The position numbers were made by a program, and so were the translations under genes. The notes beneath the pieces are model-generated. The model ran no database searches. It was not told the origin of the DNA and worked only from the letters and a program-made list of their open reading frames with translations. A stretch of DNA of 25,212 nucleotides, taken from NCBI RefSeq assembly GCF_000003605.2, contig NW_003142798.1, positions 332,359 to 357,570 of the forward strand, in the 5' to 3' direction. Origin of the DNA: Saccoglossus kowalevskii. Its lineage: Eukaryota; Hemichordata; Enteropneusta; Harrimaniidae. Every line of letters begins with the position of its first letter. Within the stretch, counting starts at the first letter, position 1. Of this stretch, positions 2,584 through 23,888 are shown piece after piece.

Positions 2584-2790
2584 CGATTGTAACGTACAAT
2601 CTGCAAAGCCGAATTAATAAGTAATCGAAAAACAGGCCATCCAAATCTGACGTTGCCGTCAGCTAGCTCTTTTTTCAGAAATATAATAACGTATATCAGA
2701 TTGCTTCAACAGTTTTTATCTCTTTACGCTAGACACTTAGCGTGTATGTCTTTTGTCTTGACTTGTATCCGGGCACACTGGTTCATGTAT
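2584..2790 (+). repeat. Dispersed repeat, copy A
   Basis: This segment is similar to 3499-3745. The two copies share a start block (CGATTGTAACG followed by ACAA and CTGC, then GAATTAA), differ in the middle, then share 30 identical bases at 2673-2702 (matching 3652-3681). After that comes a diverged but alignable tail containing CTAGACACT, TTGTCTT and GTATCC/GCATCC. The block order is the same in both copies and they are in direct orientation about 0.9-1 kb apart. No coding frame or terminal inverted repeat is evident. It may be a fragment of an interspersed repeat family or an old local duplication. Confidence 0.65.
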
Positions 2791-3498: not shown

Positions 3499-3745
3499 CG
3501 ATTGTAACGGACAACCTGCCAAGTCGAATTAACATCGTTTCACCGTATAACGGGCGCTGGAAAAATCACGAGAACGGTTCGTCGCCGTCGCTAAAGAGCC
3601 CAAAATTAACAAGTGCTTTGCTTTCCTACTTCTCCTACTTTAGCAAGATCCTTTCAGAAATATAATAACGTATATCAGATTTACACTAGACACTGTTAGC
3701 CTGCTTGTCTTTGTATTGGCTTGCATCCGAGTACATTGATGTGAT
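3499..3745 (+). repeat. Dispersed repeat, copy B
   Basis: Second copy of the repeat at 2584-2790, in direct orientation. It is about 40 bp longer because of a different central portion (about 3540-3648), which includes a GC-richer insert around 3545-3600. The 30 identical bases at 3652-3681 inside otherwise diverged flanks suggest either a conserved functional core or patchy gene conversion. I cannot assign it to a named transposon family. Confidence 0.65.
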
Positions 3746-4247
3746 ACCATATGGCATTGGCATAGCACATCACGACGGCAACCACGACCATCAAATTGCA
3801 TACATTTCAATTTTTGTATTTACTATAAACCTGATCTAGAGAACACATGTTTCTAAAATACAGAGTGGTTACAGCGTTTACTGTTAAAGAAACCAATGCA
3901 GAGGCAACTACAAGAGTTTTACATGACGGTAAATGTACTTACTGGGTGAACAGGTGAATGCCGTAAGCGCTAATCACAAGGTAAAACTCACTATTTCTAT
4001 TTATCACTTTAAGAATGGACGTTATTTATCAATATTCACCAGATAACCTAAATATTGGGTTATTTTCTCGAAATATAACAATTATACCGCGTTATCATTT
4101 CCACCTCTTGACCGTTAAGTATAATCGTGCCTCTGAAGCAAGACTTGACATTTCCACCAAAATTATCAATACCAATTTATCTGCTCGTGTTCAAGGGTTC
4201 CGCGGCTTAAAATCTAAAGCGATCAATATTTCTTATTTGAGGGTCGG
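3746..4247. other. Unassigned AT-rich spacer
   Basis: About 500 bases between the dispersed repeat and the tandem duplication. An 84-codon open frame on the + strand (4015-4269) ends just inside the duplication. It has no recognisable domain and no similarity I know, and its composition follows the surrounding AT-rich DNA. I see no RNA gene or regulatory cluster. Confidence 0.5.
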
Positions 4248-4640
4248 TTGCAAATATCGAATTACGTAAAGCACTAATATCATCAAACATGTCAAAGAAG
4301 TGTACGTTTTTCTGACTGGTTTATTTCGATTTCTGTCAACATACATACCGTGTGTACCGCGAAAACAGCGAATGGTCGAATCGTTTGCAAACACATTTTG
4401 TTGAATAAAACGACTACGAACACGGTCGGCTGTACTCAACATATCAACTATGTATCACGGCCGTCATCATCGGATTGATATTCGGTTAGACCACAATCAA
4501 CTATTTATTCTTTCATAATTAATTCACCTATCAATGTACAGTAAATAGCAGGTTGTTGTTTGTTTGTGTTGTTGTTCGTAAATATTAACATAAAGTATAT
4601 AACCAGCGGAGGACTTTTACCAACGGATATATCGCTTGAG
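4248..4640 (+). repeat. Tandem duplication, unit 1 (393 bp)
   Basis: The sequence from TTGCAAATATCG (4248) to ATCGCTTGAG (4640) is repeated immediately afterwards at 4641-5035. By eye the copies are identical except for a 2-base length difference in the TTGTTTGTTTG tract (near 4557-4575, where unit 2 has GG plus an extra base pair of the run), so the duplication is recent or was homogenised. On the minus strand each unit holds an ATG-initiated open frame of about 65 codons (ATG at 4442 here) with identical sequence in both copies. I do not recognise the peptide and do not claim it is a gene. Confidence 0.9.
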
Positions 4641-5035
4641 TTGCAAATATCGAATTACGTAAAGCACTAATATCATCAAACATGTCAAAGAAGTGTACGT
4701 TTTTCTGACTGGTTTATTTCGATTTCTGTCAACATACATACCGTGTGTACCGCGAAAACAGCGAATGGTCGAATCGTTTGCAAACACATTTTGTTGAATA
4801 AAACGACTACGAACACGGTCGGCTGTACTCAACATATCAACTATGTATCACGGCCGTCATCATCGGATTGATATTCGGTTAGACCACAATCAACTATTTA
4901 TTCTTTCATAATTAATTCACCTATCAATGTACAGTAAATAGCAGGTTGTTGTTTGTTTGGGTGTTGTTGTTCGTAAATATTAACATAAAGTATATAACCA
5001 GCGGAGGACTTTTACCAACGGATATATCGCTTGAG
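4641..5035 (+). repeat. Tandem duplication, unit 2 (395 bp)
   Basis: Head-to-tail copy of 4248-4640, abutting it without spacer. It carries the same minus-strand open frame (ATG at 4835). The short motif TTGAG stands at the end of both units and also just upstream of unit 1 (4237-4241), so short homology may have served the duplication. An assembly artefact from a collapsed or duplicated contig edge is the main alternative, but the 2-base difference in the TG-rich tract argues for two real copies or alleles. Confidence 0.9.
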
Positions 5036-7990
5036 TTTATCTTTTTTAACATCCGTATCTAATTTGTTTAAGGACGTAGGTGTATCTGTAACACTTCGTT
5101 TGCTGAATGAGACGAACTCGTGAACACAGTGGCTTATACGATTGGCTGCCGGACCTTGAAATTGTGTCGATGTTACCAACCAATATTTAGACTATTGTGG
5201 GTGTGTGTGAATGATAACCTCTCTATATGTATGCAGAGTGAAATAGTTACTAGATACCAATAATAACTACAAATCTTATCTAAATCATTATTTGAATAAT
5301 TAATGGTAACCTAAAAAACTCCAAGATTTAAATGCCATGTATGAAGAGTAGAAAACAAAATTTTCAACAGAGAAATTGGAATGACGTTCATTGAACTAGT
5401 TCTGAATGTACCCAGTAACATCATTTGACCTTGTGCCTCATTACCCCACCCACCCTCCTCCCAAATGACCAACCAGATACAAGCGATACAAACAACGGTT
5501 TCAAATCAACCGAACGAACAATATAACTTATATTGTTCATACTTGGTGCAAATATACAAAAACGTCAGTTTTGACAAATTCCATCATGTTTCTATCGCCT
5601 TGCCAACAAAAAAATATCTATGGTCTTGGTATTTCAGGCAGCAAATTTCTGTAATATTAATTTTCTGTTCTTTTCATAATGTTTGGCAGTGACTTCACAG
5701 CAGTTGCTGCGAACTTAGTGGTATTATGATTAGTCAAATTGACGATCACTTTTGTTAAAATCGAAATGTGTCAGTTTAAAATTCAAATGTAATAGGTAAT
5801 TAGATAGTTTAAATGGTTTTAAATACTTTCTTTCATGAAAGTGTGATTTTGTCAATGAGGTCATCGCCATCACTGACATCACATTTGGGTACAGCATTAT
5901 CGAAAGCAGTAAGATTAGGGTTATTGTAAGTCCATCGATACGGCGTCCAAACGCCATATCACCGCATCAACTATTTCTAATGTTGACTTTGGGCCTTTGT
6001 CACCAGAGCACTAATTTTCATAAATACTTAGTAAATTCATCTTAATGGACGTAAGCAATGTTCTTTGTGTATAGTCGATTCTCTGTAATGACGTTCTTTG
6101 TTAAGAAAAGAATGGGACCGCTACTGAAGAACAAGTTTGCTGAATTTTGGAATTCGAGAATTAAAAAAAAAAGTTTTTGGGTAGCATTTCAGTTCAACGA
6201 ATCTTGCTTGTCACAATTTTGCCATTATGCTCACCGGCTTTTGTCTTTTTTTCCAAATGAGATCTTTTTGACATTCGTAGTTAAAACAAATTTATTACCA
6301 CCTTATCTTGTTTTATGGTGCCGTTGCAAAAGTTAAGGAAATGGACAATGCGACGACCCTGTCGCAGTGAAAATCAAGGCCAACATGAAATAATTATCCA
6401 TGGTCGTAAAATCGGAATAATATATCACAATTACAATATTGTTCGTCTATTAATTGAATATAAATTCGACTAAAAATTAATAAAAAATAATGATAAATAA
6501 AAACTACAAACAGTAGAAATGAATTCCATGTTAAAAATAATCGTATTAAATACGAGTTATAAAAATTAAACGAAATCATCCGTGTCAAAGCGATGTTACG
6601 AACGCATAGTTTATTTTGACACGTTTGACAGGGACTCGCTGTGATTTATTGACTTTGAGTGCAATCACAAGCCTGAAGGGTTAAATAATAAATTTATTTT
6701 TAAAATAGGACAATAAACGTATTCGAATAAAAATATAGGAAATATTTGTCGCGGGGATATGCCTATTGGCGTGCTATCTGAAAAAAACCCAAGCTTTCTA
6801 ATGATCGCGCGTGCATGGTAACGAGGGGTCCCGGGAGACAGCAAAAACAACCTAATTTGGATATCATATTAATTCCCATCAAAATTGGCAACATAATCTT
6901 TAATTACTTTCCAGAAGAGCGGAATGGAGTGCTTGTTTTGAGATGAGATCACATTCCTGTCACATAGAGAGCGCGACAAACCTAGATCAACCGGAACCAC
7001 GGATAGTGCACCCTAAATGAATACGAAGCGACTTCCTGCTAAAATCGAACTGTTTAGACTTTTTAGATTCGTTTTTTTGCGGTTTCGTTATTAATCGAGA
7101 GCAACAACGTCGTAAATACATTTCACAATATCGACACAATATATTTATAGAGAGATGGTATAAACGTGCCTTTGATGATTATTTTATTTTTTAATTAAAT
7201 TTGGGAAGATTCGATCGTCTGTTGAAAGACCATCCATAGGCGTATTCGGTTCATCGTGGTCTTTGACAGTGTACGGGTAGAGCCTCCGATATCATGTCGT
7301 TCACAGAGAACCTCGATGATATTAATTGTTTGTCAGTCTCATGTTAACTCACGTAATCCTATGTGAAAGGTTCGAATATTATGAGGCATTCATAGAATTA
7401 AATTTAATAGTTGCTGCAAATTTTAGGAGGGAAAAAGTCACATTATAATATCTCGAATAACATTGGAATTATTGATCATTGACCGATTTTTCGATCTATA
7501 TATTTACATACATATATTTAATTATGGCAATTATTCCTCCAAATGAAATAATTATGGCTGCTCATTAAATAACACAATACGAGCCCGTGAAACGTCATAG
7601 CAATAAGCTCTGTCCATCGAGCTAAATCTGAATGATAATACATCAATACTATCTAATGATGTTATCTAACAGTCCTGGATTGGATTAAAATGACAAAACA
7701 CACTTCTATCGTCTTGTATTGACATTTATATTGAACCAAGTCAACTAAGCCTTGGGTTTGAACACCAGTATGACTACATCTTGACACACCGAGAAACTGA
7801 TTCGTTTTTCAAAAATGTTTTGACTTTAATCGTACCGATCATTATATCTGGGCATTTTTTTTCTCCGCGGTATGTAACATGAAACGAGATCTACCATGTA
7901 TTTTAGCCGTGTGTTGTACCTTGGGAATGACTAGTCTTGTTCGCGTTAGGAAACCATAATGTTCAGAATACGTTGCAAATCGGGATAAGT
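5036..7990. other. AT-rich stretch without a recognisable gene
   Basis: Nearly 3 kb with very low GC and many A/T runs. Two ATG-initiated frames stand out. One is on the minus strand at 5730-5957 (75 codons, one hydrophobic segment near its N-terminus, G at -3 and +4 of the ATG). The other is on the + strand at 6058-6336 (92 codons, Phe/Lys-rich, running through a poly-A tract). Neither resembles a known protein and frames of this length are expected by chance in so much sequence. No RNA gene, repeat array or clear promoter is seen. Confidence 0.5.
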
Positions 7991-7994
7991 ATTG

Positions 7995-8017
7995 TGACGT
8001 CATCATGCCATATATAA
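7995..8017 (+). promoter_or_regulatory. CRE plus TATA box: candidate core promoter
   Basis: A perfect palindromic CRE, TGACGTCA (7995-8002), lies 8 bases before a TATATAA element (8011-8017). CRE sites bound by CREB/ATF proteins commonly sit close upstream of TATA boxes in animal cAMP- and activity-responsive promoters. If used, transcription would start near 8040. The first ATGs after that open only very short frames (4 codons at 8042, 35 codons from 8066), so any gene served would need splicing, or the transcript would be non-coding. The TATA element could also be chance in AT-rich DNA. Confidence 0.35.
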
Positions 8018-8685
8018 CGACCCAGGCTCCTAATCAAGAACATGAGTACCCATTGAGTACTTTTCATGGTAATTACAAATACGATTCTTCAGAGAAGCCG
8101 GAAGTGGCATCACCAAAATGACCGTTTCCAAAATTTCGCTTATATTGTGTATGGTCTGAGCATCGTATCATAGAGAATGCGACACTAGCCAACAATTGTT
8201 TTTATTATTATGTAAACATTTCTTTGCGCATACTTATAATTTGCTATACACATTTTCAGTTTTCATTCAAAATTTAAATTAAAGCGAGATTCACTTTTTA
8301 CAAATACATGACAGACAGGAGATTATATAAATATAAGATATTAGAAAATATATTTATTTATATTCCTAGTTTTGCAATAAAAAATACGTGGACAAAACTA
8401 TACTATTACTGATTTTGAAATAAGGGAAGGCACAATCAACAAAATTATCATACTTTTACTTAAAATTGTAAACTTCCAAATAGCGGAAAATATCATGGCA
8501 ATAGCAAAGCCATAAGGAGTAACAACATCAACGATATTATATACATTATCAGTAATCATTTTCTGGCAATCATCGCCCCCGTGTTTAGACACGCGTTTCA
8601 TTCTGTTATTTTCTCATTAAATTGTTTTTCACAATTTATTAAATAGCGTTTTGATTTAAATCGTTATCAATGAATGACGTAGCGC
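8018..8685. other. Unassigned AT-rich spacer
   Basis: AT-rich sequence after the CRE/TATA pair. It contains poly-T and TATTTAT tracts and a minus-strand frame of 67 codons (8398-8601) without recognisable features. Nothing here can be supported as a gene or RNA. Confidence 0.45.
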
Positions 8686-8975
8686 GTTGGGAACGTTGCA
8701 GGCCCAGTGTCGGTGGACCGTGAGCAGCCTACGTGTACACCAGTCTGTTCGTGCTCACACGCCGCGGGAAACGGTCAGAGTTCGGAACAACAAAGAGGTA
8801 GGAAAAAACACACAGAGAACGCCTGTCAGCTGTGTAGTGTGTTGGACACTTGGGACCACACGGGAAGAAGCTATCACGATCGTTTGGAAAGTGTGTTTAG
8901 CGTAGCACATAAATCACCTCCGTCATCATCATTGTTTACAATGTCCTTAACCCCGTCTCCATTTTCCGACTGAAG
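8686..8975. other. GC-richer, CpG-rich island with overlapping open frames
   Basis: Base composition changes sharply to about half G+C with many CpGs, in contrast to the AT-rich flanks. Two overlapping + strand frames (72 and 88 codons) cross it, but both begin at non-ATG codons (TTG, GTG), so neither can be a complete animal gene by itself. A splice-donor-like AGAG|GTAGG occurs at about 8793-8801. It could be a 5' exon with its CpG-rich promoter, a conserved enhancer, or the remnant of a coding exon. I recognise no protein domain. Confidence 0.3.
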
Positions 8976-9119
8976 AAATCACCCATTTTAATTTTAATAA
9001 TCATGCAACACCTGGTTTCTTATGCGTCAAACCATAATTCGTCATAAGTTTTATAATTCCGTGTGATGAAAAAATGAGACTGAGAAATAATTCTACGATG
9101 TTTTGGAATGAATTACTCC

Positions 9120-9480
9120 CTCCGAAACGCCACGGCACGACTTGACACGAATGACAAGGTGTCCCGGTAATGAAGCACTAACCATCCACATACCCTCCGG
9201 GCATGCGTTCGACAGGAGGTGCGGAAATGATGAAAGTCTCCCCGTTAGAGGTCATTCGATATGCATATATCTGCATCAGGGGTATTCCACGCAGTTTCAC
9301 ACCGTTTTACAACTACCGGTAGATTTATAGCATGGGTCACAACGCCAAAAGCCCAACACAACAAGTCGCACGCGTAAACGTCAGTCACGCGTACTACACA
9401 CTCAGTACAGTACCGTAATTGGCGATGGCGACTCCTCGAATCATACGCCGCTATACCCTAATGCCGCTTTGTCCGCTTTC
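9120..9480. other. GC-richer island, no recognisable gene
   Basis: A second local rise in GC and CpG, with ACGCG and CACGC motifs, the palindrome ATATGCATAT near 9259, and a 59-codon ATG frame from 9151 that I do not recognise. It ends at the AT-rich sequence after 9480. Regulatory DNA or an unrecognised exon are both possible. Confidence 0.3.
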
Positions 9481-11217
9481 ATTCTTCCTCCACTTGGTTG
9501 TCCTTGGTAACAGGACAAATCAACATGGGACGAAACTGAAACCTAATTTTTGTTTCTTTAATGCGATATTTCTGAAGAAGTAAATATAAATGTGGCGTTT
9601 CAAAAAGGAAAAATAAAATACATTTATTAGATATGCGGTATATGTTTGGCTGGAGTTTTACTGCATTTCGTATCAACTATCTGCCGTGGAAAAAGTAATT
9701 AATGTTCAGCACTTTTACTTTTATAGCTCGGATAACACACGGAAAACTACAAAATAAAATATCTGTTTTAAGTTCAAATTCCACCCTTCAACAGTTTTCC
9801 TGCCTATAGTTGGTTCTATAATATCTGATTGGAAACATAACGGTCTTTAAACCGAACCAACATGTTTGTCAAAATTTATGTGATTTATAGAAAGTAACAT
9901 TTGGTGGACATCAAATGATATAGATTCTGGTTGCTGTTTTTCATGTATCATAATCAGTACGCTACTATTCAGCCTTGGCGCTCACTTTCAGGAACCAGTC
10001 TACTTATGGTCTTGTTCGACTCCTTGCAATACATCAATGATCGTTTTAATGGATGCAAAGTGAGATACACCAACCAACAGATGCTTACCGTTAAAACGTT
10101 TATTAATTATGGAAATTGAATTATTATGTAATAAATATAATTGGGGTCAGCTTTATAATAATTCTGTGCATTCGTATTAGGCCATATTGGTTCCACAGTG
10201 AATGGTATGTTGCTCATTCGATTTTATACTTTGTGTGACATTCAGCCTAATCACGGGGGGGGGGTTCTTCAATTCACATTAAGTTGAGGCGGCCTTGGCT
10301 TAGTTTATGTCACTGTACCCTTTAATAGGGCATTGGATCTTATTTTGGATCTTATCAAAAGCTCTCGTTTAGTAGTAACTACTTTTTTTTCAAATGAAAC
10401 GCTTTTTTTGATGGCTACATGGTCCAATGCGTCATGAAGTGTAGCTGGGTATTAGGATCGACTCAACTCACATGAACAATACCTCTAAAGTAGGGGCTTG
10501 CAGCGCGGTTTAAAAAAAAACGCCCAGTGTCCGCGACAAATGAAATGACGACCTCCAAAAAAAGCGGTGACTGAAACTGGACGAGAATTATATTGAAATG
10601 ACGCGTATTATCCAGGTGGATGGAATAACTGTTGTGGGTGCGTGCGAAAAGAAACCAGCTTGAGATAAGAAAGTGTTTGGAACAATGCATTTCCCCCCGA
10701 AGCAAGATAGCATTAGAGAAGAAAAAAAAACGGCGCCATCTTGTGTGTTGCAAACTTTTGTTTATCAGCTTCTAGGCTGAGTTGTATTGCGAGAGAATGG
10801 AAGCATTGCTGCAGGGGTTTACTTTCACAGCATAAACCTCCGCGATCTGTTGTTTAGCTTGTTTTGCCAAATAAGATATTGACGTTGGCTTTTTATCCAG
10901 TGCCGTGGGCGATCTCACAAAAGTCACTGAATTGTTTTTTTGTTTTGTTTTTGCAGTTTACAATGTTTTCTTAAAAGTTTTAATGCGAAAATGAGACTTA
11001 ACATATCTTGAGCGCCGCGTGTGTGCCTAGGTCGATTACGTTTTTCAAAGCGAATGTAAAAGTAAAATAGTCATACATTTCAGCCAGCCTCAAGACGTAT
11101 CCGAAACCTACCAAATAGGGCAGACGATATGAAGATCGTTTACAATGAATGCGTATATCGAATATTGGACGCAAAATAACGAATGAATATGTCTTACAGA
11201 AATATACTAGTATTCTG
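9481..11217. other. Unassigned stretch
   Basis: Mostly AT-rich and without a supportable gene. Details seen: an uninterrupted run of ten G at 10255-10264; an 11-base direct repeat TTGGATCTTAT at about 10334 and 10346; and a YY1-like motif CAAGATGGCGCC read on the minus strand at about 10732-10743, the kind often found at animal transcription starts. The ATG in that motif opens a frame of only 8 codons. No RNA gene is seen. Confidence 0.4.
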
Positions 11218-11840
11218 TCAGTGGTTTCGAACGGGCCGGGAATGTGTACTTGAGGTACTGGCGTAATTTTTTACCCATTTGTTCAGAAATTGCCGGCTGT
11301 GTTTTTTCCAATCACAAAGTACCATCATGCACCACAAACCTTCAATTCCACAGCCAGGTGTTGTCGACTTGCGATGGCGGCTGTCGTATACCCTCCTCTC
11401 GCTGGTGCGTACTGGGGTCCTTTTAATTGGCACTTGGGGTAGGGGGTGCAAGACCGTAGTGTGGAAAAAAATTGTCATAATCTGATCGCTTTCGATCGTT
11501 CTATTAACCAATTCATTCTAACGGAAGATCACCCAGCCATCGCTAGCAATTTGTTGTTTTCTAAAGCCAGCATCTTTCGGATGAGTTGTCCCATTGAAGC
11601 GCACCGAGTTACCGTGTAAAGGGCGAAGCGCCGCTCCATGTGTCAAACGCATGGCAGGGCAAGCCAATGTGTTCGCTGGGCTGAAAAATCTCCAGTTGCT
11701 CTCGGCGGTGTTAAGTCTTCTGGTAGGAGTGACTGCACAGAGTTCCGGTTTTGCCCTGGTTTTTTTAGGATAATGGAACCATGGTCTAATGCTTGGTCAA
11801 TCAACAACAAAACTAACGTTTATATTATATTTCAGTAGCC
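11218..11840. other. GC-richer island with open frames on both strands
   Basis: A roughly 600-base block of higher GC between AT-rich flanks. A 97-codon frame lies on the minus strand (11218-11511, starting at TTG rather than ATG), and overlapping 60- to 68-codon frames lie on the + strand. None has a recognisable domain. Long frames on both strands at once are typical of GC-richer DNA without coding selection. It may be regulatory or an unrecognised exon of a gene reaching beyond the window. Confidence 0.3.
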
Positions 11841-12469
11841 TTTTTTTACTACACCGTTATTGCGTGTGAATCATGATACAAAAGCTGGCTCTTCCATGTC
11901 GTCATCACCTGTTCCCTTCAAAAATAACAATATAAGACGATTAGAATGAATATAACAATCTGCGAAAATCACTAACAACTCTTTTTAGCAAACACACATA
12001 TCATTCTTGTTTAAAAATATGAAGTAATAGTAATAATGAAATTCAAACACTGATGTAATAATTATCCTAAGTACTCGTAATTGTGACGTGTTTTGCACTG
12101 ACGTCTACAGTTGCCATGGTAACTTAGAAACAGTGTAACAATATATAATAAATATGATTCTCTTACATGCAGTTAAACAGCCTAATAACTCACGCATATT
12201 GACTAGAGATTCCACGTCGTTGTTCATCAGTGTAGACAGCCTGGCTATTTTAAGGTTAACAGCGTTATATAGTATGATATAGCAATACATTTAAATCCAC
12301 AGAATTGTCTGTATTAAAACACGTTTGTTTTTTTTCACGACGACAGCACGCTTTTTTAATGTCTCTTATTGACATCATATGTTACTATGGTTACCTGTAT
12401 GTCCGAGAATGATACTGTGCCTTTTTCTTAGGTTGCGAGTAATGGTTTCCCAAAGATGGAAAATCAGAC
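11841..12469. other. AT-rich spacer upstream of the FAM181-like gene
   Basis: No coding region, repeat or RNA gene can be supported. The sequence is AT-rich with short poly-T tracts (near 12330 and 12350) and returns to mixed composition approaching the promoter of the downstream gene. It would be a natural place for distal regulatory sites, but I see no dense motif cluster before about 12470. Confidence 0.45.
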
Positions 12470-12473
12470 GAGC

Positions 12474-12590
12474 ACGACAATGTTTATATGAAGTTATCAT
12501 TACACCGCTAAATGTTCCTAAATATCACAGAGATATTACAAAATCGTTTTGAAGACAATTACAAAGGATCGAAGCACTTTGTACAACAAG
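12474..12590. promoter_or_regulatory. Cluster of SOX/TCF-like sites upstream of the promoter
   Basis: Within about 115 bases there are ACAATG (near 12478), ACAAT (12555-12559), ACAAAGG (12561-12567), its inverse CTTTGT (12577-12582) and ACAAC soon after. ACAAT/ACAAAG are core recognition sequences of HMG-box factors (SOX and TCF/LEF), and the ACAAAG/CTTTGT pair forms an inverted arrangement with a 9-base spacer. Vertebrate FAM181 genes are expressed in the nervous system, where SoxB factors act, so the position is suggestive. Such short AT-rich motifs also arise by chance. Confidence 0.3.
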
Positions 12591-12622
12591 AACTTTTCTG
12601 TTTTTCAACTCGCAACATAGGA

Positions 12623-12731
12623 GGGCGGGCTATTCGAGGAAAGCATCCTCCAATAAGAAACCCTTACCGGTGAGTGGTCGAGTATAAGTGACAACGCCAA
12701 GCAGTTGCAATTTAATAGCGCTCTTATAAAA
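12623..12731 (+). promoter_or_regulatory. GC-box / CCAAT / TATA promoter candidate for the FAM181-like gene
   Basis: In order on the + strand are a GC box GGGCGGG (12623-12629), a CCAAT box (12650-12654) and a TATA box TATAAAA (12725-12731). If the TATA box is used, transcription begins near 12755-12762, with CCAAT and GC box about 105 and 135 bases upstream, roughly the usual arrangement. The only clear gene downstream on this strand is the FAM181-like frame starting at 13485. A weaker TATA-like AATAAAAGG at 13218-13226 is an alternative nearer start. A donor-like GTGAGT at 12670-12675 lies upstream of the TATA box and would only matter if transcription began earlier. Confidence 0.45.
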
Positions 12732-12901
12732 CGACATCGACTGAACGTGATGTCCGCTCGGTCACATATGCGCTCACAACAGCCCAATTAGCCGCCGATA
12801 AATCAAGTACAAAGGAAGCAAGCGATAGAAAGACAGCGGTGAAAGGAACGGTTATTTAGTGGCGGAGATTCGCCTTCAGTACGCCCAAGCGGATTGGCCG
12901 T

Positions 12902-12951
12902 NNNNNNNNNNNNNNNNNNNNNNNNNNNNNNNNNNNNNNNNNNNNNNNNNN
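12902..12951. other. Assembly gap (50 Ns)
   Basis: Exactly 50 undetermined bases, a round number that suggests a scaffold-gap placeholder or minimum gap size, so the true length is unknown. It lies between the promoter candidate and the start of the FAM181-like coding region, within the presumed 5' leader or first intron. Any feature in the missing DNA, such as a splice donor or an upstream exon, is invisible here. Confidence 0.98.
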
Positions 12952-13415
12952 TGTTTGTGTGTATGGAAGTGCCGATTGAACACTGACGACGCCACGCTGT
13001 GAGAACTACATACATACCTCTACGGTGGGAGTTGTTTACAACGCTTCTTTTATTAGCTGTCTTTAATGGTAATTTTGTACCCGACACGTCTGTATTGGAA
13101 ATGCTATCGTGGCCATCAAGTTCAGGACACGAGTTGCAAGGGTGCATAACATTCGTACTACACCGTCCTACTGTTACAGTGCACCGAACACGCGTTGGCG
13201 CCGTGGGAATAGATCAGAATAAAAGGCGCTTTATACCGGACATCTGTTTAGGGTACGAAGACAGTTTAGTATAATCAACACGTGTAGTGCCAGAAGTTGG
13301 AGAACACCCCCAATCAAGGCATAACCAAGTCATTGGTGACAGTGTACGCAAATGCATTCGCGATCTGAGAAACAGTTCTGAGCAACAACCGAGTGTAACT
13401 TCTTTGAGCCCAGGA

Positions 13416-13439
13416 CTGATAATTGTTGTGTCTTCACAG
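13416..13439 (+). other. Splice acceptor with branch-point-like motif
   Basis: The sequence CTGAT (13416-13420) fits the animal branch-point consensus. It is followed by a T-rich tract (TTGTTGTGTCTTCACAG) ending in CAG at 13439. Spacing of about 20 bases from branch point to AG is typical. The exon would begin at 13440, leaving 45 bases of 5' UTR before the ATG at 13485. The donor is not obvious in the visible leader and may be in the 50-N gap or at one of several weak GT sites (for example GGTAATTT near 13067). Confidence 0.45.
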
Positions 13440-13484
13440 TTTTGTGAACTCTTAATCGTGTTTTTAAAAGAAATCTTTTGTATA

Positions 13485-14645
13485 ATGGCGAATATGAATT
13501 TTTTGCTCGGGGGAACATACCCTGTTCCACAGCCTACTTGCCAGCAAGACAAGGGGAAGGACCTGCTCACGTTTGTCAACGTTGCATCGTCGCATATAAT
13601 GCGCACTTTACAGAAACCAAAGAAAGGAAGATCGAAGAAAAGAAACGTTAATCACCGCCGGTTTCTTGAGAAGCAACTCTGTAAAAAATACAGCACACCG
13701 GTCGCGGCTGTTGTCACGGAAGTCGAGTTGGTTGAGGAGAATGCCACAGACTCGAACAGCGTCGCTTCGATAGACAAAGATACGAAGATTTCTCGAGTTA
13801 TGCCGAGCCAAAATAACATTTGCACCAGAGAAAACGGCACATGCAAAGATAGGAACGCTATGAAAAATGAAAAACAATTTATCGAACGATCAAACGGTGT
13901 TATGTACCGAAAACCACCACCGAGGCACAAAGTTTCGCCGAGTTATGTCGAAGCTGATCATGCATTCGTTCTTGGATCCAACACGACATCAAGCTGCGCA
14001 TATAAAACACAAAATTGCAGACTTAGTGGACAAACTCACCCCCCTATGTCAAATGGTGAGTTTTACTGTCAAAATAATAATTTTTACAACAGATCAGTCA
14101 AATTGGGTCGATCGACTTCAATGGCGACACCTTCAGTGATTTCTCCAGTGGCCTCGGCATCTGAAGTTATGTACGATGTTGACATTTCAGGGCCACATTT
14201 CCAGGAAATCACCGATATCCTGACACCAATTTTTTCCGATGCCGATACTGGAATTACGCAATACCGCGACAATTGTTCGAGTAATTCGGAAATGTCGAAG
14301 TCTTCGATCTGTTGTGCCACTAACACGGCTTTGAACTATGTGGACTACCAAACCGGTCGGGATTACGCCGACTCGCCGACAGAATCTAACGTTTCTTATA
14401 GCACGGAACAATCTTCCGAATTTGAGTACGACATTCCGACATCGGAGCAACACATTGGACAGCATCAAGGCACGGTCACGGAATATACGGAGCTTTCGCC
14501 GTGCATGTACAGCGACTTAAGCGGCTGGATCAGTCGTGATAGCAATCTTTCCAACTTGTACGATCTTACAGTTCAGCTTCTCGAGCAACAACAACGAGAC
14601 TTACCATGCGGTGAAAGTGGAGTGGCGTTAGCCGCAAACATTTGA
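13485..14645 (+). CDS. FAM181-like protein (FAM181A/FAM181B family), single-exon coding region
   Basis: The 386-residue product matches the FAM181 core in residues 26-70. A DLLTFVNVASSHI segment, close to the family's LL-F-(V/I)-(N/D)-ASS-I pattern, precedes a basic stretch with KKRNVNHRRFLEKQL, matching the family's (K/R)-V-(N/D)-H-R-(K/R)-(Y/F)-L-(Q/E)-KQ pattern. Vertebrate FAM181A and FAM181B bind TEAD factors, the Hippo-pathway effectors, through an omega loop of the LP-SF type after this core. Here the nearest candidate is residues 147-156 (RHKVSPSYVE), a degenerate version. The basic run at 44-59 could be a nuclear signal. The rest is Ser/Thr/Asn/Tyr-rich and looks disordered, with an acidic, hydrophobic-spiked C-terminal half (ITDILTPIFSDAD at 232-244; MYSDLSGWISRDSNL at 341-355) that might act in transcription. 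The ATG at 13485 is the first in frame, with A at -3 and G at +4. The frame extends upstream only to a GTG. Lack of introns in the coding region agrees with vertebrate FAM181 genes. Whether it is an orthologue of A, B or their ancestor cannot be decided here. Confidence 0.87.
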   Translation: MANMNFLLGGTYPVPQPTCQQDKGKDLLTFVNVASSHIMRTLQKPKKGRSKKRNVNHRRFLEKQLCKKYSTPVAAVVTEVELVEENATDSNSVASIDKDTKISRVMPSQNNICTRENGTCKDRNAMKNEKQFIERSNGVMYRKPPPRHKVSPSYVEADHAFVLGSNTTSSCAYKTQNCRLSGQTHPPMSNGEFYCQNNNFYNRSVKLGRSTSMATPSVISPVASASEVMYDVDISGPHFQEITDILTPIFSDADTGITQYRDNCSSNSEMSKSSICCATNTALNYVDYQTGRDYADSPTESNVSYSTEQSSEFEYDIPTSEQHIGQHQGTVTEYTELSPCMYSDLSGWISRDSNLSNLYDLTVQLLEQQQRDLPCGESGVALAANI

Positions 14646-15072
14646 GCTCAGAATCTACATTGTATTTGTTTTTTTGAAAAGCTTTAATTTTGCCACATAA
14701 ATGAATTGCAAACCATTTTCTAAATTATTCAGTACGCTGTTTAGAGACACTTTGTTGATCTGCTAAATTCTTAACTGCCGTAATGATATACGATAGTTAC
14801 CCAATGTTAGTTCAGCGTGCCAAGTGTTCGATGTACCAGCTGAGACACGAAAAGAATGAAGAGCTCACTTTTTTTTCCTACTAATGGTTTAACTGCCGAT
14901 AATTATGTTCGACCTTTAAGTTCAGTTCCCTCACATTTATTAAGCTTATATATTTGATTCATTCGGTAAATGATTGCAATAATTATATGGTTATCAATGA
15001 CTTTTTCTGACATGGATTGAATGGGCGACAAGAGCCCCAGTGTTTATACAACTAACACAAGACTTTTCACTA

Positions 15073-15093
15073 AATAAAAGTGGTCTGATTTTT
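15073..15093 (+). terminator. Poly(A) signal candidate of the FAM181-like gene
   Basis: A canonical AATAAA (15073-15078) is followed closely by a GT/T-rich element (GTGGTCTGATTTTT, about 15080-15093), the usual arrangement around an animal cleavage site. It would give a 3' UTR of about 440 bases. I saw no AATAAA or ATTAAA on the + strand between the stop at 14645 and this point. The intervening UTR is AT-rich with poly-T tracts. Confidence 0.5.
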
Positions 15094-16319
15094 AAAGGAT
15101 AAAAATCTATGAAGCGTCTCGTTCGTGAACAATCAACAATACGAGCTGTATAACAAGCACGCGTGGTAATAGAGAGTTTATTTTTGAAGGTGTCGAACAA
15201 GTTTGGATTGTTGTTGTTATACGCTCGATGGTTTATTGTTGTCAGTTTTAGTTGAGTTAAATAGACTTGGCTACACCCCACTGGATAAAACCTTATCCAG
15301 CGGCTTACAATGAAAATTCAATTCCATAACCCATTCATACATTTATCTAACTTGGAACAACGATACCTTAATTACAACGTATGATACTTAATTTTGGGCA
15401 CAAAAATTGAATAATATCTACTCCCATGTTGAAGTCAGAAGGTGTTGGTTTTTGATAAAAACTACAGAAAGCCCGTCAATGTCAACTCTCCCAAGGTCGT
15501 CAGTCGTCGTATAATTTCATGACCTGGCTTTAGTACGGTTGACTGGCTATTTCGTTATATCCTGTTTACTAATCATCGAAAATAGACGATTAAATTTAGA
15601 CAGTTTATCATCCATGAAATAGGCATATTCTGAGTCTCCGATCTATGTTAATTTACCAGAGGATAGGAAATCGACGTTTAAAGACACTTATAAGGACGCT
15701 AACCACGTCACTAACTACGAAATAACCTAACATGGTGATTATTTTTGTACAGACAACGCACGTTTTTTTATTTATTTAGAATGGAAATAATGAAACCCAC
15801 TGCATATTGTTCTGTCATTTTATTCATTATTTGTCAAATATTAATATTGTTTATTTTGCTAAAACTGGTCACACGACTTGACGGATTATACTGTTTTGCC
15901 TATGAGTCATATTCCTGTAGACAAATGTTTCTGATCGATAATCTTATTGGCAATAATAAAAAAGAACAATAATCATGTAAACATTAAACTGGTAGGAAAT
16001 GTTGATATTATTAAATAATTCAGTGGCTCTTTAATATCTCGACGCATTGAACATTATCCACTTGTCAGTTCTATGGTACAAAAATGAAACAAAACACACT
16101 TTGAGTTTATATGTTTATTTCTTTTTAATGTGTTGATAACATGTACAGTAACGCGAGATACGCACAGTCGTCCACTTGCATAACATGTACGTGTTCGTCA
16201 ATTTGCTTCACTAACAATCGTGATGAAAACAATATTTACTTCAAAACAACTTTTCTTGATGAGAGGGAGAGGTCACATTTGTTGCCACGGTGACGTACAT
16301 ACGTTTTATTTCCTATTTC
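15094..16319. other. Unassigned AT-rich stretch downstream of the gene
   Basis: No gene can be supported. An ATG frame at 15781-15972 (63 codons) has a good initiation context (A at -3, G at +4) and would encode one strongly hydrophobic segment (residues about 10-28) followed by a Cys/Tyr-containing tail. It is preceded by an acceptor-like TTTTTGTACAG. It might be a small membrane peptide or chance in AT-rich DNA. A perfect hairpin at 15281-15300 is listed separately. Confidence 0.4.
15281..15300. repeat. Perfect 8-bp inverted repeat with 4-base loop
   Basis: CTGGATAA, loop AACC, TTATCCAG. The arms are exactly complementary and the loop is minimal, so the transcript of either strand could form a stable short hairpin. 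It also places two GATAA/TTATC (GATA-factor type) cores back to back. It lies about 200 bases after the poly(A) signal candidate of the FAM181-like gene. No function is known to me. Confidence 0.7.
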
Positions 16320-16348
16320 TTAACCCGTTCATTTATACAACGGGTTAA
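16320..16348. repeat. Perfect 10-bp inverted repeat with 9-base loop
   Basis: TTAACCCGTT, loop CATTTATAC, AACGGGTTAA. All ten arm positions pair. It is directly followed by a G-rich run (GAGGGAGGAGGGGGTGG, about 16353-16370). The arms resemble terminal inverted repeats in size but there is no room for a mobile element between them. A palindromic binding site or RNA hairpin are the simpler readings. Confidence 0.75.
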
Positions 16349-16370
16349 ACTGAGGGAGGAGGGGGTGGTT

Positions 16371-17214
16371 CTACTGGAGTGATAACACGGTGGTACAGAG
16401 GCACGTGTATGAACTTGATAGCCTAACTAAACCATTGAACGTGAACAGTGGTCAAGTACATGCTACAATACAATACACGTGTTCACTTGATGTGAAGTAC
16501 ATGAAGAAAGCAATACACATAATTTCTGGCAAAATTGTTACTGTTTATTCATGTTTAATATATGTATGCGATGTCTCATAGCAAGGATGCATGCAACATA
16601 ACAAAGGAATACTAAATGTGTTAAAGATAGTTATTAATGAATATGGCGTTACATGTGACATAAGCTACTTTATTTGTTTAAAAAACTGCATTTTAAAGTT
16701 TGAACTTCGCGTCAGTTTGAAATTAACTAGACATCAGTTCATGTGGGCAAGCTACATACACGCCTCATACACGACATGAAGTACATGCTACAAACAAGCC
16801 ACACGCAAAATCATCAAGTGCAATTTCCAGTAATTTCCAACTGTTAGCATCACTTTATTTTTTTAACGAGTATTTAAAATATTGTCATTAAAGAGTATTT
16901 ATTATACGTTATTGTTTTTTCATTGCCTCTGTGTTGAATTCCGAACGTATATTTTTTTTTTATCCGGAAACGAACACGTCCCATGAGTGTTGCTGATTTA
17001 ATTTGCTTTGTATACCGTTCCAATCTTGATAATAAATCCCCATGAAATATACATTGTTATTACTTGTGTAGTAATCAATAGGTTCGGTGCTGATTTCTTA
17101 TCTCTCGACCATTGCGACATCAATCATCGAACGAAATTGACAAAGCACGCTGCGCGACACCCTTTTTTTTATTTTTAAAAATTGACTTCTGAAAGAAAAC
17201 GACAAAATAATACA
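16371..17214. other. Unassigned AT-rich stretch with short direct repeats
   Basis: No supportable gene; frames reach only about 63 codons and do not begin in convincing contexts. AAGTACATGCTACAA occurs twice (near 16454 and 16781), with a related GAAGTACATGAAG near 16493. Poly-T tracts occur near 16951 and 17163. No RNA gene is seen. Confidence 0.4.
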
Positions 17215-17500
17215 GTCGATAAAGCTGGCGGGTGAAGGCGAAGGGTATACGTTTCACGGCGGAGATCATCTATCAAGTTCTCTCGAGACTAAGCGACCGG
17301 GTTTCAAGAACCTCCCACTCGTCGCGGCGTTTGCCGGGTTCTCATTGCGTACGTGCACGTGATTTGAGACACACGATATCACTTTACTTCGCGTTCATGC
17401 TATATATCTGGGTGGCCTTGGGTGTGCAGCTGACAAGATTGGCGAGAGACGTTCCACTATCAAAGTGCTTTAAAATGACGTCTTTCGGTGTGTATTGATG
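17215..17500 (+). other. GC-richer island with an 88-codon open frame
   Basis: A sharply bounded rise in GC within AT-rich DNA. The + strand frame 17232-17498 starts at GTG, so it could only be an internal or 3' exon, not a complete gene. A hydrophobic segment (about residues 47-63) is its only visible feature. A double E-box-like ACGTGCACGTG lies near 17351. I do not recognise the peptide; a regulatory element is an equal possibility. Confidence 0.25.
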
Positions 17501-19235
17501 ATCATAACCCCGTCTCAACAACACGCAACATATCATAACGTGGGAAAATGACCCAAATTAATAGCACAAAACTAAAAATGTACACAAGTCAAGTTTCCAA
17601 TAATGCTTCCATCAAAAGTAAAAATATTTTTCCAGCTCAGGAATAGATTTGATAATGATGTAGCCTTGGCACAAAATTAAGCGATCAAAACCACTAATTC
17701 AATAAATAGTGCATTTTAAAGGCTACCATTGAGTCGGTCAATGTGATGAAACCATCACATTTATTACGGAAGAGATAATACAAAATGCAAGATTTGGTAA
17801 CAGAATTCATTTAAAATAAATTAACAATTTTAAAATAAGATAACATATTTTTGGCAAAATCCAAGATTTATCAGCATAAAAACAAATATATCCTTTGAAG
17901 TTCCATTTTTTGTCGCTATATTTCCTAAATGATAACGATCATTGTATATTTATCGTCTCAATCAAAACCATAGAACACCGTATATTAATTTCACGTCACC
18001 ACGGGCGTGTTTAAGGCATACACGCTGCAGTTTCTTTAATAATAGCGTGAGAAAAATGCAGCAGTTTTTTGTCATTTCGATGCCTCTGTCACAATGATGC
18101 ACACTGTTCTAAACTCCCGCTGTGACAATATGTATGGATCTCATGGATGCTATTCGCACCTCGACAATAGACGGTCGAATCTCCTCCTGCCGACCGGCTT
18201 CAGTTCCAGCTTGTACGCCCTGGGGTGGTGGTTTCAATGTCCCGATTCAGTGACGTCACCGTGTATCCGATCACAGGTCTAATTGGCTGCACAGTCAAAC
18301 ACCAAAACAAATGACATTGATCACAATAACAGTGAAAAGTTGTTCCTTTCAGTGCAATCCGCGTTCAGAGGCGAGTTTGCAAGGATCGGACGTAGTTGAG
18401 AAAACAAGATGAAAGCTATGAAAACATCGCGAACAAAGATATGTGTTAGTACATGTAATTAGGAATTAATCGGGAATAAACCAGACTTTAATTAATTGCT
18501 TTCCCGCTTGAAAATAATCTTTTTGACTAAGCATTGTGTCTTAATGTCCGACCTCGTGACCTCCGGGTCAAATGAAGCGTGCGAATGAGATACACATACA
18601 TACACATATATATGAACTTATTTTAAGGTGTGAGTTTCAGGATTAAACCACATCAGTGACAGTGACATATTCTGGACACACGTATAGATATGAGAATAGA
18701 ATACATAAACTTACAATGAACTGATCTGAACTAAAGACGACTATTTTGTGTTTGACACACAATGATGAAACAGCAATCATGTCGTGTTATTTTGTCTTCT
18801 CAGATAACCTCAAGGCCATTGTGAAACATTTATAATATCTAATTTTGCGTTTCACTGTCTTCGTCTCTACTATTTACTGTTATTGTGTACTACCGACTTT
18901 CTGACAGCGAGAAAAACGAAACCCTCCACACCCACTGAATAGGATTTTAATTTCATAGCTAAAGTCTTACAGTTGAATATTATTATATACGCCAGTTGAC
19001 CCTCCTCCCACAGTAAAAATCAATGCTAATGAATCAACTTCACATATCTGCCGTCACAATTACATTTTTTCTGTCTGGACTTGGGTGAAAAATTTTGCAT
19101 ATTTTAAAGTAATTTTCTGCTACGTCTTTTGGACCAATTAACATGATTTTTTTATTGGCTATAAATTTCTATTAAAAAAATCAGTAGGCTTATTTGTGAA
19201 AGGAGACTAAAATTGACTTTGGCGTTCGACTGGTT
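17501..19235. other. Unassigned AT-rich stretch before the minisatellite
   Basis: No gene, RNA or repeat array can be supported. A perfect CRE palindrome TGACGTCA lies at 18251-18258 in a small GC-richer patch (about 18060-18290) that includes a 62-codon frame I do not recognise. A short CA/TA microsatellite lies near 18593-18614. Confidence 0.45.
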
Positions 19236-20826
19236 TTAATATGTATACCAGTGAACATTTCTAGTATATCATTGAATGCTTTCAGTATACAAGTGAACAT
19301 TTTCAGTATATCAGAGAACACTTCCAATATACCAGTAAAAATTTCCAGTATATCAGAGAACACTTCCAATATACCAGTAAAAATTTTCAGTACATCGGAG
19401 AACACTTCCAATATACCAGTAAAAATTTTCAGTATATCAGAGAACACTTCCAATATACCAGTGAACATTTTCAGTACATCGGAGAACACTTCCAGTATAC
19501 CAGTGAATGCTTCCAGTACACCAGTGAACACTTCCAGTACACCAGTAAACATTTCCAGTATATCAGAGAACACTTCCAATATACCAGTAAACATTTTTGT
19601 ATATCAGATAACACTTCCAATATACCAGTAAACATTTTCAGTACATCGGAGAACACTTCCAGTATACCAGTGAATGCTTCCAGAACATCAGAGAACACTT
19701 CCAGTACATCAGTGACCATTTCCAGTATATCAGAGAACACTTCCAATATACCAGTGAATGCTTCCAGTACATCAGTGACCATTTCCAGTATATCAGAGAA
19801 CACTTCCAGTATACCAGTGAATGCTTCCAGTACATCAGAGAACACTTCCAGTACATCAGTGACCATTTTCAGTATATCAGAGAACACTTCCAGTATACAA
19901 GTGAATGCTTCCAGTATATCAGAGAACACTTCCAGTATACCAGTGAATGCTTCCAGTATATCAGTGACCATTTCCTGTACACCAGTGACCATTTTCAGTA
20001 TATCAGAGAACTCTTCCAGTATACCAGGGAATGCTTCCAGTACATCAGAGAACACTTCCAGTACATCAGTGAACACTTCCAGTACATTAGTGAACACTTC
20101 CAGTACATCAGTGACCATTTCCAGTATATCAGAGAACACTTCTTCCAGTATATCAGCGAACACTTCCAGTATACCAGTGAACACTTCCAGTACATCAGTG
20201 AACACTTCCAGTACATCAGTGAACACTTACAGTACATCTGTGAACATTTCGAATACACTATTGAACACTTCCAGTACATCAGTGAACACTTCCAGTACAC
20301 TAGTGAACACTTCCAATACACTAGTGAAAACTTACAATACACTAGTGAACACTTCCAATGCACTAGTGAACACTTCCAGTCCATCAGTGAACACTTCCAG
20401 TACACTAGTGGACACTTTCAATACACTAGTGAGCACATTAATGAACAGTACACTAGTGAAATTTCCAGTACACTAGTGAACAGTTCCAGTACATTAGTGA
20501 ACACTTCAAATACACTAGTGAACACTTCCAATACACTAGTAAACACTTCCAATACACAAGTGAACACTTCCAATACACTAGTAAACACTTCCAATACACT
20601 ACTGAACACTTACAAAACACTAGTGAACACTTCCAATACACTAGTGAACACTTCCAATACACTAGTGAACACTTTCAATACACTAGTGAACACTTCTAAT
20701 ACACAAGTGGACACTTCCAGTACATCAGTGAACACTTCCAGTACACTAGTGGACACTTTCAATGCACTAGTGAGCACATTATTGAACACTTCCAATACAT
20801 TATTGAACACTTCCACAACATATATT
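19236..20826. repeat. Minisatellite, 21-bp unit, about 75 copies
   Basis: The consensus unit is close to AGTGAACACTTCCAGTACAT plus C (21 bases). The array has distinct blocks. At about 19300-19600 the period is 42 bp (GAGAACACTTCCAATATACC alternating with AGTAAAAATTTTCAGTATATC). At about 19690-19950 a 63-bp trimer dominates (GTGAATGCTTCC, GTGACCATTTCC, GAGAACACTTCC). At about 20040-20300 near-identical 21-mers end in ACATC. At about 20290-20770 a variant carries ACTAGT and CAATAC. Because 21 is a multiple of 3 and the unit lacks stops in several frames, long open frames run through it on both strands: + strand with a Thr/Ser/Asn/Val heptad (NTSSTSV type), minus strand with an EVFTDVL-type heptad. 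Single-base shifts near 19600 and irregular units near 20440 change the frame, which argues against one continuous coding sequence. Confidence 0.95.
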
Positions 20827-21419: not shown

Positions 21420-22839
21420 GGTAACACCGACGCGATGCTTTGTTCGAAGCGGACTCCATTCAACTGAGAACACGTCAATAAACCAAAACTCACTTTCAAA
21501 TTACTCTACTTTTGCACAAATTTCAGAAAAACAAAAACAGTTGGTTTCAATTGCAATTTTTAACAAAGAAAGTTATTTGTAAGTATCTATCAAAGGTTGT
21601 CAGTTTTGAAGAAAGCATTAAACGTACTTAACGAAGATTTTCTCCGGCTGGGTGAATTCCTATTAATTTGCCAACATCGTTTCATATCAGCAATGAATGA
21701 CCCTCCGTCCAAGAAAGCCTTAAATACCTTTCTTTCTTTGCCGGTTCGTATGCGTCACTTGAGAAACTTTATACCCAAATTAGCCAATTTAGTTGAGGCA
21801 TAGCCAGCTGATGGACATGGTTGCGGCAACTGTCCTTAAACGAGTGCCACGGACACATATCGAAGTTGAAAAACAGAAATCAAAGTAACGGAAATTGTAA
21901 ATGAAATATACATCGAAATAAACATGTTGTGTTAACTATTCTGAGAACTATTTATTATAAATTGGTTTTAATATAAGAACAACATTAGCGTCAGAAGATA
22001 AGATCGCTAACGTCGTACTATGCAATAATGAAAGTTTGCAATCAAGACTACTTTTAAAGTTAAAGGAAAGCATAATAAAGCAAGATTTGACAAGTTTGAT
22101 ATGAAAGATATGGGAAATCGAATATCAATGAGAACGAAACGACAGACTGGCACCGCTTTTATGCGTCAGAGCAGACGTACTTGCAAATAGATAGTAAGTA
22201 GTATACTAAACGCTTTGCTATGCGAACAATTATGTTTTAACGAATATAACAAGTTTGAAAAATGTCATGTTAAATATGTGATTGCGTTGATGCATATTGC
22301 TGTATATGTCAGTTGACACCCCGTCGGCATCGCTCCGGACAAATCTGATCTCGGAATCTTAAATATGATTCAAACACAACCGAAGAAAATTTACGATCAT
22401 GTATAACGGCAGTTCATTGTCATTACAGGTAAATTCTCAAAAACGGCACGCGCAGTTGAAGCGCAAATTTTTGACGACGCTCTCGCGGCAGAGATGCTGT
22501 GAACTTAAGTATGTGCATCGAACCGCGGACATCGGAGGAGAGTCTATGTACGGGTGAACTGGGGGTTGATGCGATGTGTCGGCCTGTCGATAACACCGAT
22601 AAAGCGATGTATCCAACATTTTTTTTTTATCTTGAAAATAAAAAAATCATCAAGAAAGCGCACGATGTAGACACAATGTCTGCATACATGTTGGTATACG
22701 AGACGCGGTGACTATTCTGAGGCTAAAAGTGAAAGACCAGTGAGCGAGTCTTGGCAGCGGGTAGTGGTCCGTGTTCACTGCGTAAATAGTTAATAATGCT
22801 AGAAATGAAAACAAAACATAGGATTACGTCAGATGTAAC
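21420..22839. other. Unassigned stretch with an unrecognised 79-codon frame
   Basis: On the + strand an open frame runs from just after a TAA at 21561-21563 to the TAG at 21801-21803. It is Leu/Lys-rich and looks like amphipathic helix, but has no ATG near its start, so it could only be an internal or terminal exon or a pseudogene fragment. I do not recognise it. A second, GC-richer patch at about 22437-22720 has a 66-codon ATG frame (from 22511) without known features. Confidence 0.35.
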
Positions 22840-23130: not shown

Positions 23131-23387
23131 TAATCAAATTATAGTTGTACAATCATCATCTCGGTAGTTAGTATTTAATGGGAATTCCGCATGTTTCTGA
23201 AACTTAATAGTTCCGTGTTGCAACATAATGACAAAATCTCATGAATATGGGCTGCTGACGTCATAGAATGAATCGTGACTGAAAATGGTAATGCGTTGTA
23301 ATTAGTGTCATACCACGTGTCTTTTCCACCTAGCAGAGGTCGTCCGTCCGTCGCGGGTGTACATTGCACATATGAGACATTCGTATC

Positions 23388-23469
23388 ATGTCTTACCAGA
23401 AACACACACATTTGAGACGGCCCCTAGTCATTTCTTGCCAGGAAAAACACACATTTGAGACGGTCCCTT
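23388..23469 (+). repeat. Short imperfect direct repeat, two copies, 43-bp offset
   Basis: CTTACCAGAAACACAC... and CTTGCCAGGAAAAACAC... both continue into CACACATTTGAGACGG followed by CCCCT or TCCCT. The shared block is about 34 bases with a few differences, and copies are offset by 43 bases. No coding or RNA role is visible. Confidence 0.7.
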
Positions 23470-23690: not shown

Positions 23691-23888
23691 TTGAGATCTT
23701 TTCGAACCCAGCCTCCGCAGAATCTGTACTGTTGTATCAATACCCCTCCAGCAACGATCTGCTCCGTGTCTCTTTGGAGGTGCTCGGCGAGGTGTATACG
23801 CAGCGCCGTGTCTCTTTGGAGGTGATCGATGAGGTGTGTACGCAGCGCTGGCCTTAATAAATTCACTCCAGAGTATTCCTGAGCGCAT
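23691..23888 (-). other. Candidate exon (minus strand) containing a 42-bp tandem repeat
   Basis: On the minus strand an ATG at about 23888 opens a frame encoding a basic, Pro/Arg-rich peptide with two adjacent 14-residue repeats (AAYTPHRSPPKRHG and AAYTPRRAPPKRHG). These come from a 42-bp tandem repeat at 23764-23805 and 23806-23847 that keeps the frame. The frame runs past a good donor-like CAA|GTAAGC (GTAAG at 23690-23686). I do not recognise the peptide. A spliced gene reaching leftwards, or non-coding DNA with a chance frame, are both possible. Confidence 0.25.
23764..23847. repeat. Two-copy 42-bp tandem repeat
   Basis: CCGTGTCTCTTTGGAGGTG followed by CTCGGCGAGGTGTATACGC in unit 1 recurs 42 bases later with few substitutions (ATCGATGAGGTGTGTACGC in unit 2). 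The length is a multiple of three and both units are open in the same minus-strand frame. Confidence 0.85.

What the first reader, a model, noticed from the sequence alone, without database searches (positions are those of the whole stretch)
13485..14645. FAM181-family gene with a degenerate TEAD-binding loop
Residues 26-70 carry the FAM181 core clearly. Vertebrate FAM181A/B are known to contact TEAD through an omega loop resembling that of YAP (pattern R-x-L-P-x-S-F-(F/W)). Here the only similar segment downstream of the core is residues 147-156, RHKVSPSYVE, which keeps the Ser, a hydrophobic residue (Val for Leu) and an aromatic (Tyr for Phe) but replaces the second hydrophobic aromatic with Val and the Arg with His. 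Either this lineage has a weaker or differently tuned TEAD contact, or the contact arose or was lost in one lineage. That bears on when FAM181 joined the Hippo pathway.
Basis: partly seen in the sequence, partly recalled or inferred. Interest (0 to 1): 0.7.

Follow-up and report, generated by a model that had tools for sequence, protein, structure and literature searches.

The report
FAM181-family gene lacking detectable TEAD contact
This animal gene carries the hallmark front part of the FAM181 protein family, but the stretch proposed as a worn-down docking loop for TEAD, the transcription factor of the Hippo pathway, is no better a match than chance, so the gene is best read as a family member without a recognisable docking site.

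Summary
The ORF at 13485-14645 (+) is real and coding: 386 aa, first in-frame ATG at 13485. Residues 23-70 align with the FAM181 N-terminal core of human FAM181A, FAM181B and C19orf85, above the maximum of 3000 shuffles for each. The family call is well supported.

The loop claim is not. Pfam PF15238, now "TEADIR3, omega loop", finds the recalled human FAM181B and YAP loops but not the window protein at E up to 10. The interface-2 helix and the ordered helix-loop pair are also at chance level. The strict loop pattern is in none of the window's six frames.

An annelid FAM181 is reported with similarity in this interface region, and vertebrate C19orf85 is reported to have the core without TEAD motifs (PMC9710580). 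Best reading: a member with the core only, by loss or as a C19orf85-like branch; a loop diverged beyond recognition is not excluded. Species, other FAM181 copies and TEAD could not be examined.

The parts
13485..14645 (+). ORF, 386 aa, FAM181-family protein (stop codon included)
13551..13694 (+). FAM181 N-terminal core, residues 23-70
   Evidence: Alignment with recalled human FAM181A/B and C19orf85 cores, far beyond shuffles
13551..13610 (+). core helix 1, residues 23-42 (predicted)
   Evidence: AlphaFold2, single sequence, mean pLDDT 69.6 for the 58-residue piece
13614..13643 (+). basic linker, residues 44-53 (KPKKGRSKKR), possible nuclear localisation signal (inferred)
   Evidence: sequence read directly; residues 21-72 hold 15 K/R and 3 D/E
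13647..13691 (+). core helix 2, residues 55-69 (VNHRRFLEKQLCKKY), predicted
   Evidence: holds several of the columns shared by the paralogues
13914..13958 (+).
   Evidence: no Pfam hit
14175..14642 (+). Acidic Ser/Thr-rich tail, residues 231-386 (5 K/R, 25 D/E, S+T 23%), possible effector/activation region (inferred)
14544..14579 (+). Residues 354-365 (NLSNLYDLTVQL), best interface-2-like window; not above chance and downstream of the loop candidate
   Evidence: 34% of 1500 shuffles reach it
13437..13439 (+). splice-acceptor-like CAG, 45 bases between it and the ATG; a 5' exon upstream is possible
   Evidence: weak

Best explanation
This is an invertebrate member of the FAM181/C19orf85 family, defined by its N-terminal two-helix core, in which the TEAD-binding part (interface-2 helix and omega loop) is absent or beyond recognition. 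Shown: the coding ORF, the core, and the lack of any TEAD motif above chance. Inferred: the animal is an invertebrate, the protein is nuclear (basic linker), the core docks an unknown partner through its first helix and its basic second helix, and the long acidic Ser/Thr-rich tail is the effector part. It would thus do the core's job without recruiting TEAD, as may also hold for vertebrate C19orf85. Whether it lost the loop or belongs to an old core-only branch is not decided.
For: The core aligns with three recalled human paralogues above the maximum of 3000 shuffles each. The recalled letters fit the coordinates printed in PMC9710580 for FAM181B, C19orf85 and PERCC1, and the recalled FAM181A loop matches PDB chain 6l9f_C. 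PF15238/TEADIR3 hits the control loops at 6.5e-08 and 2.3e-08 and not the window protein. Loop, helix and ordered pair are at chance level (29%, 34% and 48% of shuffles). A local three-sequence loop HMM with all filters off reports a YAP piece and not the window protein at E up to 1000 (the YAP loop was one of the three training rows, so this control is not independent). The strict loop motif is in no frame of the 25 kb. Published precedent for core without TEAD motifs: C19orf85 (PMC9710580).
Against: The Pfam-type model is known to miss real relatives: a Hydra study could not detect this domain in the YAP of Capitella, Clytia and Ciona (PMC8526868 passages). The loop could sit in an exon outside the window or in a spliced form; two relaxed loop-like matches do occur elsewhere on the + strand, R-x-I-P-x-S-F at 9278-9298 and LPTSF at 21668-21682, both close to in-frame stops. 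The human reference letters are recalled, not fetched; Pfam gave nothing for the recalled C19orf85, and of six recalled strings searched in print only the FAM181A loop string was found. No relative from the same lineage was obtained, so conservation of residues 144-158 is untested. No partner, localisation or TEAD test was possible.
Confidence: 0.62

Rival explanations
1. One reading: residues 147-156 are a homologous but degenerate omega loop that still touches TEAD weakly or in another way.
For: Best loop-like window of the protein; Ser kept and conservative changes at L91 and F95; placed after the core as in recalled FAM181A/B; the domain model is also missed in some real YAP proteins (PMC8526868 passages).
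Against: 29% of shuffles do as well; no Pfam or local HMM match; M86, R87, R89 and F96, whose contacts are described for YAP (PMC7566471 passages), are all replaced. Residues 144-154 align with a proline-rich stretch near the C-terminus of recalled FAM181B instead (score 40, reached by 2.5% of 2000 shuffles, one of four comparisons, uncorrected), while the recalled FAM181B interface 2-3 region gives only chance (68% of shuffles).
Confidence: 0.12
2. True orthologue of vertebrate C19orf85, an old branch of the family that never had, or early lost, the TEAD interface; the species would then also be expected to carry a separate FAM181 with an intact loop. (This is one form of the best explanation, not exclusive of it.)
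For: Highest local score of the three cores (112 against 101 and 91); the 3-residue gap of FAM181A/B is absent; six residues shared with C19orf85 alone; same architecture, core without TEAD motif.
Against: Over 51 ungapped columns identity is even: 39% FAM181A, 41% FAM181B, 39% C19orf85, and 2000 bootstraps split 578/798/624. Twelve columns side with FAM181A and/or B against C19orf85. A tree of these four sequences cannot be rooted. The tails show no similarity (53% of shuffles do as well). C19orf85 letters are recalled.
Confidence: 0.3
3. The core resemblance is chance or a different family.
For: No Pfam family matches the core at its cut-off (one sub-threshold DbpA match, E 0.12), but none matches the recalled human FAM181B core either, so Pfam appears to have no model for it.
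Against: p about 1e-9 to 2e-13 against three paralogues; reversed protein scores 29 and 32 against 91 and 101.
Confidence: 0.04

Closest known systems
FAM181A / FAM181B (vertebrates), and FAM181 of Capitella teleta
   Same: N-terminal core: 39% and 41% identity over 51 columns to recalled human FAM181A and B; the Capitella sequence was not seen
   Different: They carry the TEAD omega loop (TEADIR3, PF15238) and, per PMC9710580, interface 2; the window protein has neither above chance
C19orf85 (vertebrates)
   Same: N-terminal core, longer linker between the two helices than FAM181A/B, no TEAD motif (PMC9710580)
   Different: Tail without similarity; identity of the core (39%) no higher than to FAM181A/B
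PERCC1
   Same: Nothing significant found here; PMC9710580 reports a shared N-terminal helix in the wider family
   Different: Core score at background (p 0.14); PERCC1 has interfaces 2 and 3 (PMC9710580)
YAP/TAZ
   Same: None found
   Different: No match of the tail to the recalled YAP TEAD-binding piece (98.8% of shuffles do as well); TAZ was not compared

Membership tests
FAM181 family (N-terminal core) | conserved N-terminal core, human FAM181B 59-106 (PMC9710580) | tested here: met
   Gumbel p 2.5e-11 against recalled FAM181B core, 1.2e-9 against FAM181A
FAM181A/B, TEAD-binding | interface 3 omega loop PxxxRxLPxSFFxxP / Pfam TEADIR3 | tested here: not met
   No Pfam hit at E up to 10 with positive controls found; best window at chance level
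FAM181A/B, TEAD-binding | interface 2 helix LxxLF before the loop | tested here: not met
   No LxxLF in the protein; best PSSM window at chance level and far downstream
FAM181A/B, TEAD-binding | physical binding to TEAD | not testable with these tools
   No complex prediction or assay available
C19orf85 | FAM181-type core without recognisable TEAD motifs | tested here: met
C19orf85 | orthology (rooted tree) | tested here: inconclusive
   Near-equal identity to all three paralogues; four-taxon tree unrooted
PERCC1 | N-terminal region plus interfaces 2 and 3 | tested here: not met
   (p 0.14)

The most novel reading that the evidence does not exclude
The FAM181 core has a TEAD-independent job of its own, and a core-only branch, of which this gene and vertebrate C19orf85 are both members, goes back to the bilaterian ancestor; the link to Hippo/TEAD is a separable module gained or lost around the core.
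Probability: 0.25. Interest if true: 0.5.

Novelty: new member of a known kind. Interest (0 to 1): 0.3.

Why it matters
If the core survives in animals where the TEAD interface does not, the core must be kept for something other than Hippo output, and that function can be sought in core-only proteins free of TEAD effects. FAM181A and FAM181B have been named as cilium candidates (PMC8470418 and PMC10380512, passages read), which gives a place to look. As a single unaligned gene from an unnamed species the finding itself is modest.

Tried and rejected
Pfam on the whole protein and on four pieces: only a sub-threshold DbpA match (E 0.12, 12.9 bits against a cut-off of 25.6), rejected. PDB sequence searches with the protein and with residues 126-172: nothing. 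Relatives in viral contigs (8 pattern matches; 58) and prokaryote genomes (41): none confirmed by tblastn, as expected for an animal gene; no eukaryote collection was on hand. RNA families and tRNAs: none. Neighbouring genes: 10 of the 24 long frames were scanned (of the other 14, 8 overlap this gene or its nearest 5' flank and 6 lie in the repeat array); three weak matches (E 0.032 to 0.14), none at a curated cut-off, so synteny gave nothing. A C-terminal pair NLSNLY ... RDLP looked at first like a relocated interface 2 plus the start of a loop; the helix part is at chance level and no SFF follows. Assigning the gene to C19orf85 outright was tempting from the local score and dropped after the identity bootstrap. 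The full-length AlphaFold2 model is too poor to use (mean pLDDT 35.7), so no fold search was run. An attempt to date the TEAD link from this gene alone was dropped.

Papers: PMC9710580, parts 1 and 2 of 3 read; PMC10146773, PMC8526868, PMC8470418, PMC10380512, PMC7566471 and PMC10620186, passages only. Bokhovchuk et al. 2020 (the FAM181-TEAD structure paper) is not held: not seen. Other papers appeared as search listings only.

Full report
The gene. The frame 13485-14645 (+) encodes 386 residues and a stop without interruption. Its stop-to-stop frame of 456 codons far exceeds the longest frame in 200 Markov simulations of the window (maximum 219), and the ORF as a whole shows 3-base periodicity (4.9, flanks at most 2.4; thirds of the ORF 3.3, 2.2 and 2.7). 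The first in-frame ATG is at 13485; a weak acceptor-like CAG lies 45 bases before it.

The core. Pfam appears to have no model for the FAM181 N-terminal core: no family reaches its cut-off for the window protein or matches the recalled human FAM181B core. I therefore compared directly. Residues 23-70 score 91 against FAM181A, 101 against FAM181B and 112 against C19orf85, where 3000 shuffles of the protein reach at most 47, 50 and 46; the reversed protein scores 29 and 32 against FAM181A and B. Their reliability was checked in these ways: residues 59-106 of the recalled FAM181B and 12-61 of the recalled C19orf85 are the core, as PMC9710580 states; residues 173-222 of the recalled PERCC1 hold the interface motifs with Ser at 216, as that paper states; and the FAM181A loop agrees with PDB 6l9f_C and with a peptide in PMC10620186. 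Two checks gave nothing: Pfam on the recalled C19orf85, and five of six recalled strings sought in print. AlphaFold2 on residues 18-75 alone gives two helices, 23-42 and 55-69, at moderate confidence (mean pLDDT 69.6, pTM 0.32), joined by a basic linker.

The loop. PF15238 is in the present Pfam a 16-residue model named TEADIR3, omega loop. It finds the recalled FAM181B and YAP1 loops at 6.5e-08 and 2.3e-08 and gives nothing for the window protein at E up to 10 or for four pieces of it, one of which (residues 136-168) holds the segment. A profile from three loops (two letter-confirmed by PDB rows, one recalled) puts residues 144-158 first among all windows of the protein, with 11.0 against about 60 for the loops themselves; 29% of 5000 shuffles reach that. 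At the eight conserved positions the segment has two identities, two other windows have three, and 2751 of 3000 shuffles have three or more somewhere. A local loop HMM with filters off reports a YAP piece, whose loop was in the training set, and not the window protein. The interface-2 profile is best at residues 354-365, reached by 34% of 1500 shuffles; the ordered pair is reached by 48%. The strict loop pattern is in none of the six frames of the window; relaxed patterns match twice outside the gene, at 9278-9298 and 21668-21682 on the + strand, close to in-frame stops, which I take as chance.

What the segment would do if it were the loop. Set against YAP and the residue roles in PMC7566471 (passages), it has Pro for Met86 and Arg87, His for Arg89 (the salt bridge with TEAD4 Asp272), Val for Leu91, Tyr for Phe95 and Val for Phe96; Ser94 is kept. 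In the fly proteins, removing the salt-bridge Asp of Sd costs 3.6 kcal/mol with Yki and 1.6 with Vg, which has a stronger second contact (same passages). A review says FAM181A binds TEAD through interface 3 only (PMC10146773), so loss of the loop would leave no known contact; PMC9710580 instead ascribes both interfaces 2 and 3 to the family. Either way the window protein has neither above chance.

Place in the family. PMC9710580 reports that a search with the PERCC1 interface region found a Capitella FAM181 (E 0.024), and that C19orf85 has the core without recognisable TEAD motifs. So the motif is probably older than the annelid-vertebrate split, and a core-only member is already known. The window core shares six residues with C19orf85 alone and lacks the three-residue gap of FAM181A/B, but twelve other columns side with FAM181A and/or B. 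Identity over 51 columns is 39%, 41% and 39%, and 2000 bootstraps split 578/798/624. In an unrooted four-sequence tree it sits between the two groups, with the second shortest branch (0.40). I leave orthology open.

Which animal. CpG observed/expected is 1.1 over the window and 1.3 in the ORF, unlike vertebrates, where CpG is depleted (general knowledge); an invertebrate with little DNA methylation is likely (inference). The species is not known, and the tool for its own genome did not complete.

How it may work (inferred). A nuclear adaptor: basic two-helix core for an unknown partner, acidic Ser/Thr-rich tail (residues 231-386: 25 acidic, 5 basic) as effector. FAM181A is among 11 multiciliation candidates in one study and FAM181B among cilium-correlated hub genes of an echiuran larva in another (PMC8470418, PMC10380512; passages), so ciliated-cell programmes are one place to look. 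None of this is shown for the window gene.

Noticed in passing
19243-20758: Minisatellite of a 21/42-base unit, about 36 copies of 42 bases; several frames on both strands stay open through parts of it, the longest for 417 codons, most likely because the unit length is a multiple of three.
   Followed up: partly
4247-5037: Two adjacent copies of a unit of about 393-395 bases, identical over 300 and 77 bases (bases 1-19100 searched): very recent duplication or assembly artefact.
   Followed up: no
1-25212: CpG observed/expected 1.1 over the whole window and 1.1 to 1.3 in the four parts tested: no CpG depletion.
   Followed up: partly
23386-23468 and 23764-23848: Two two-copy tandem repeats of 42-43 bases.
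   Followed up: no
12902-12951: Assembly gap of exactly 50 N, 0.5 kb upstream of the gene; a 5' exon could be hidden there.
   Followed up: no
9278-9298: Relaxed loop-like peptide R-x-I-P-x-S-F on the + strand, 4.2 kb upstream of the gene, in a short frame; taken as chance.
   Followed up: no
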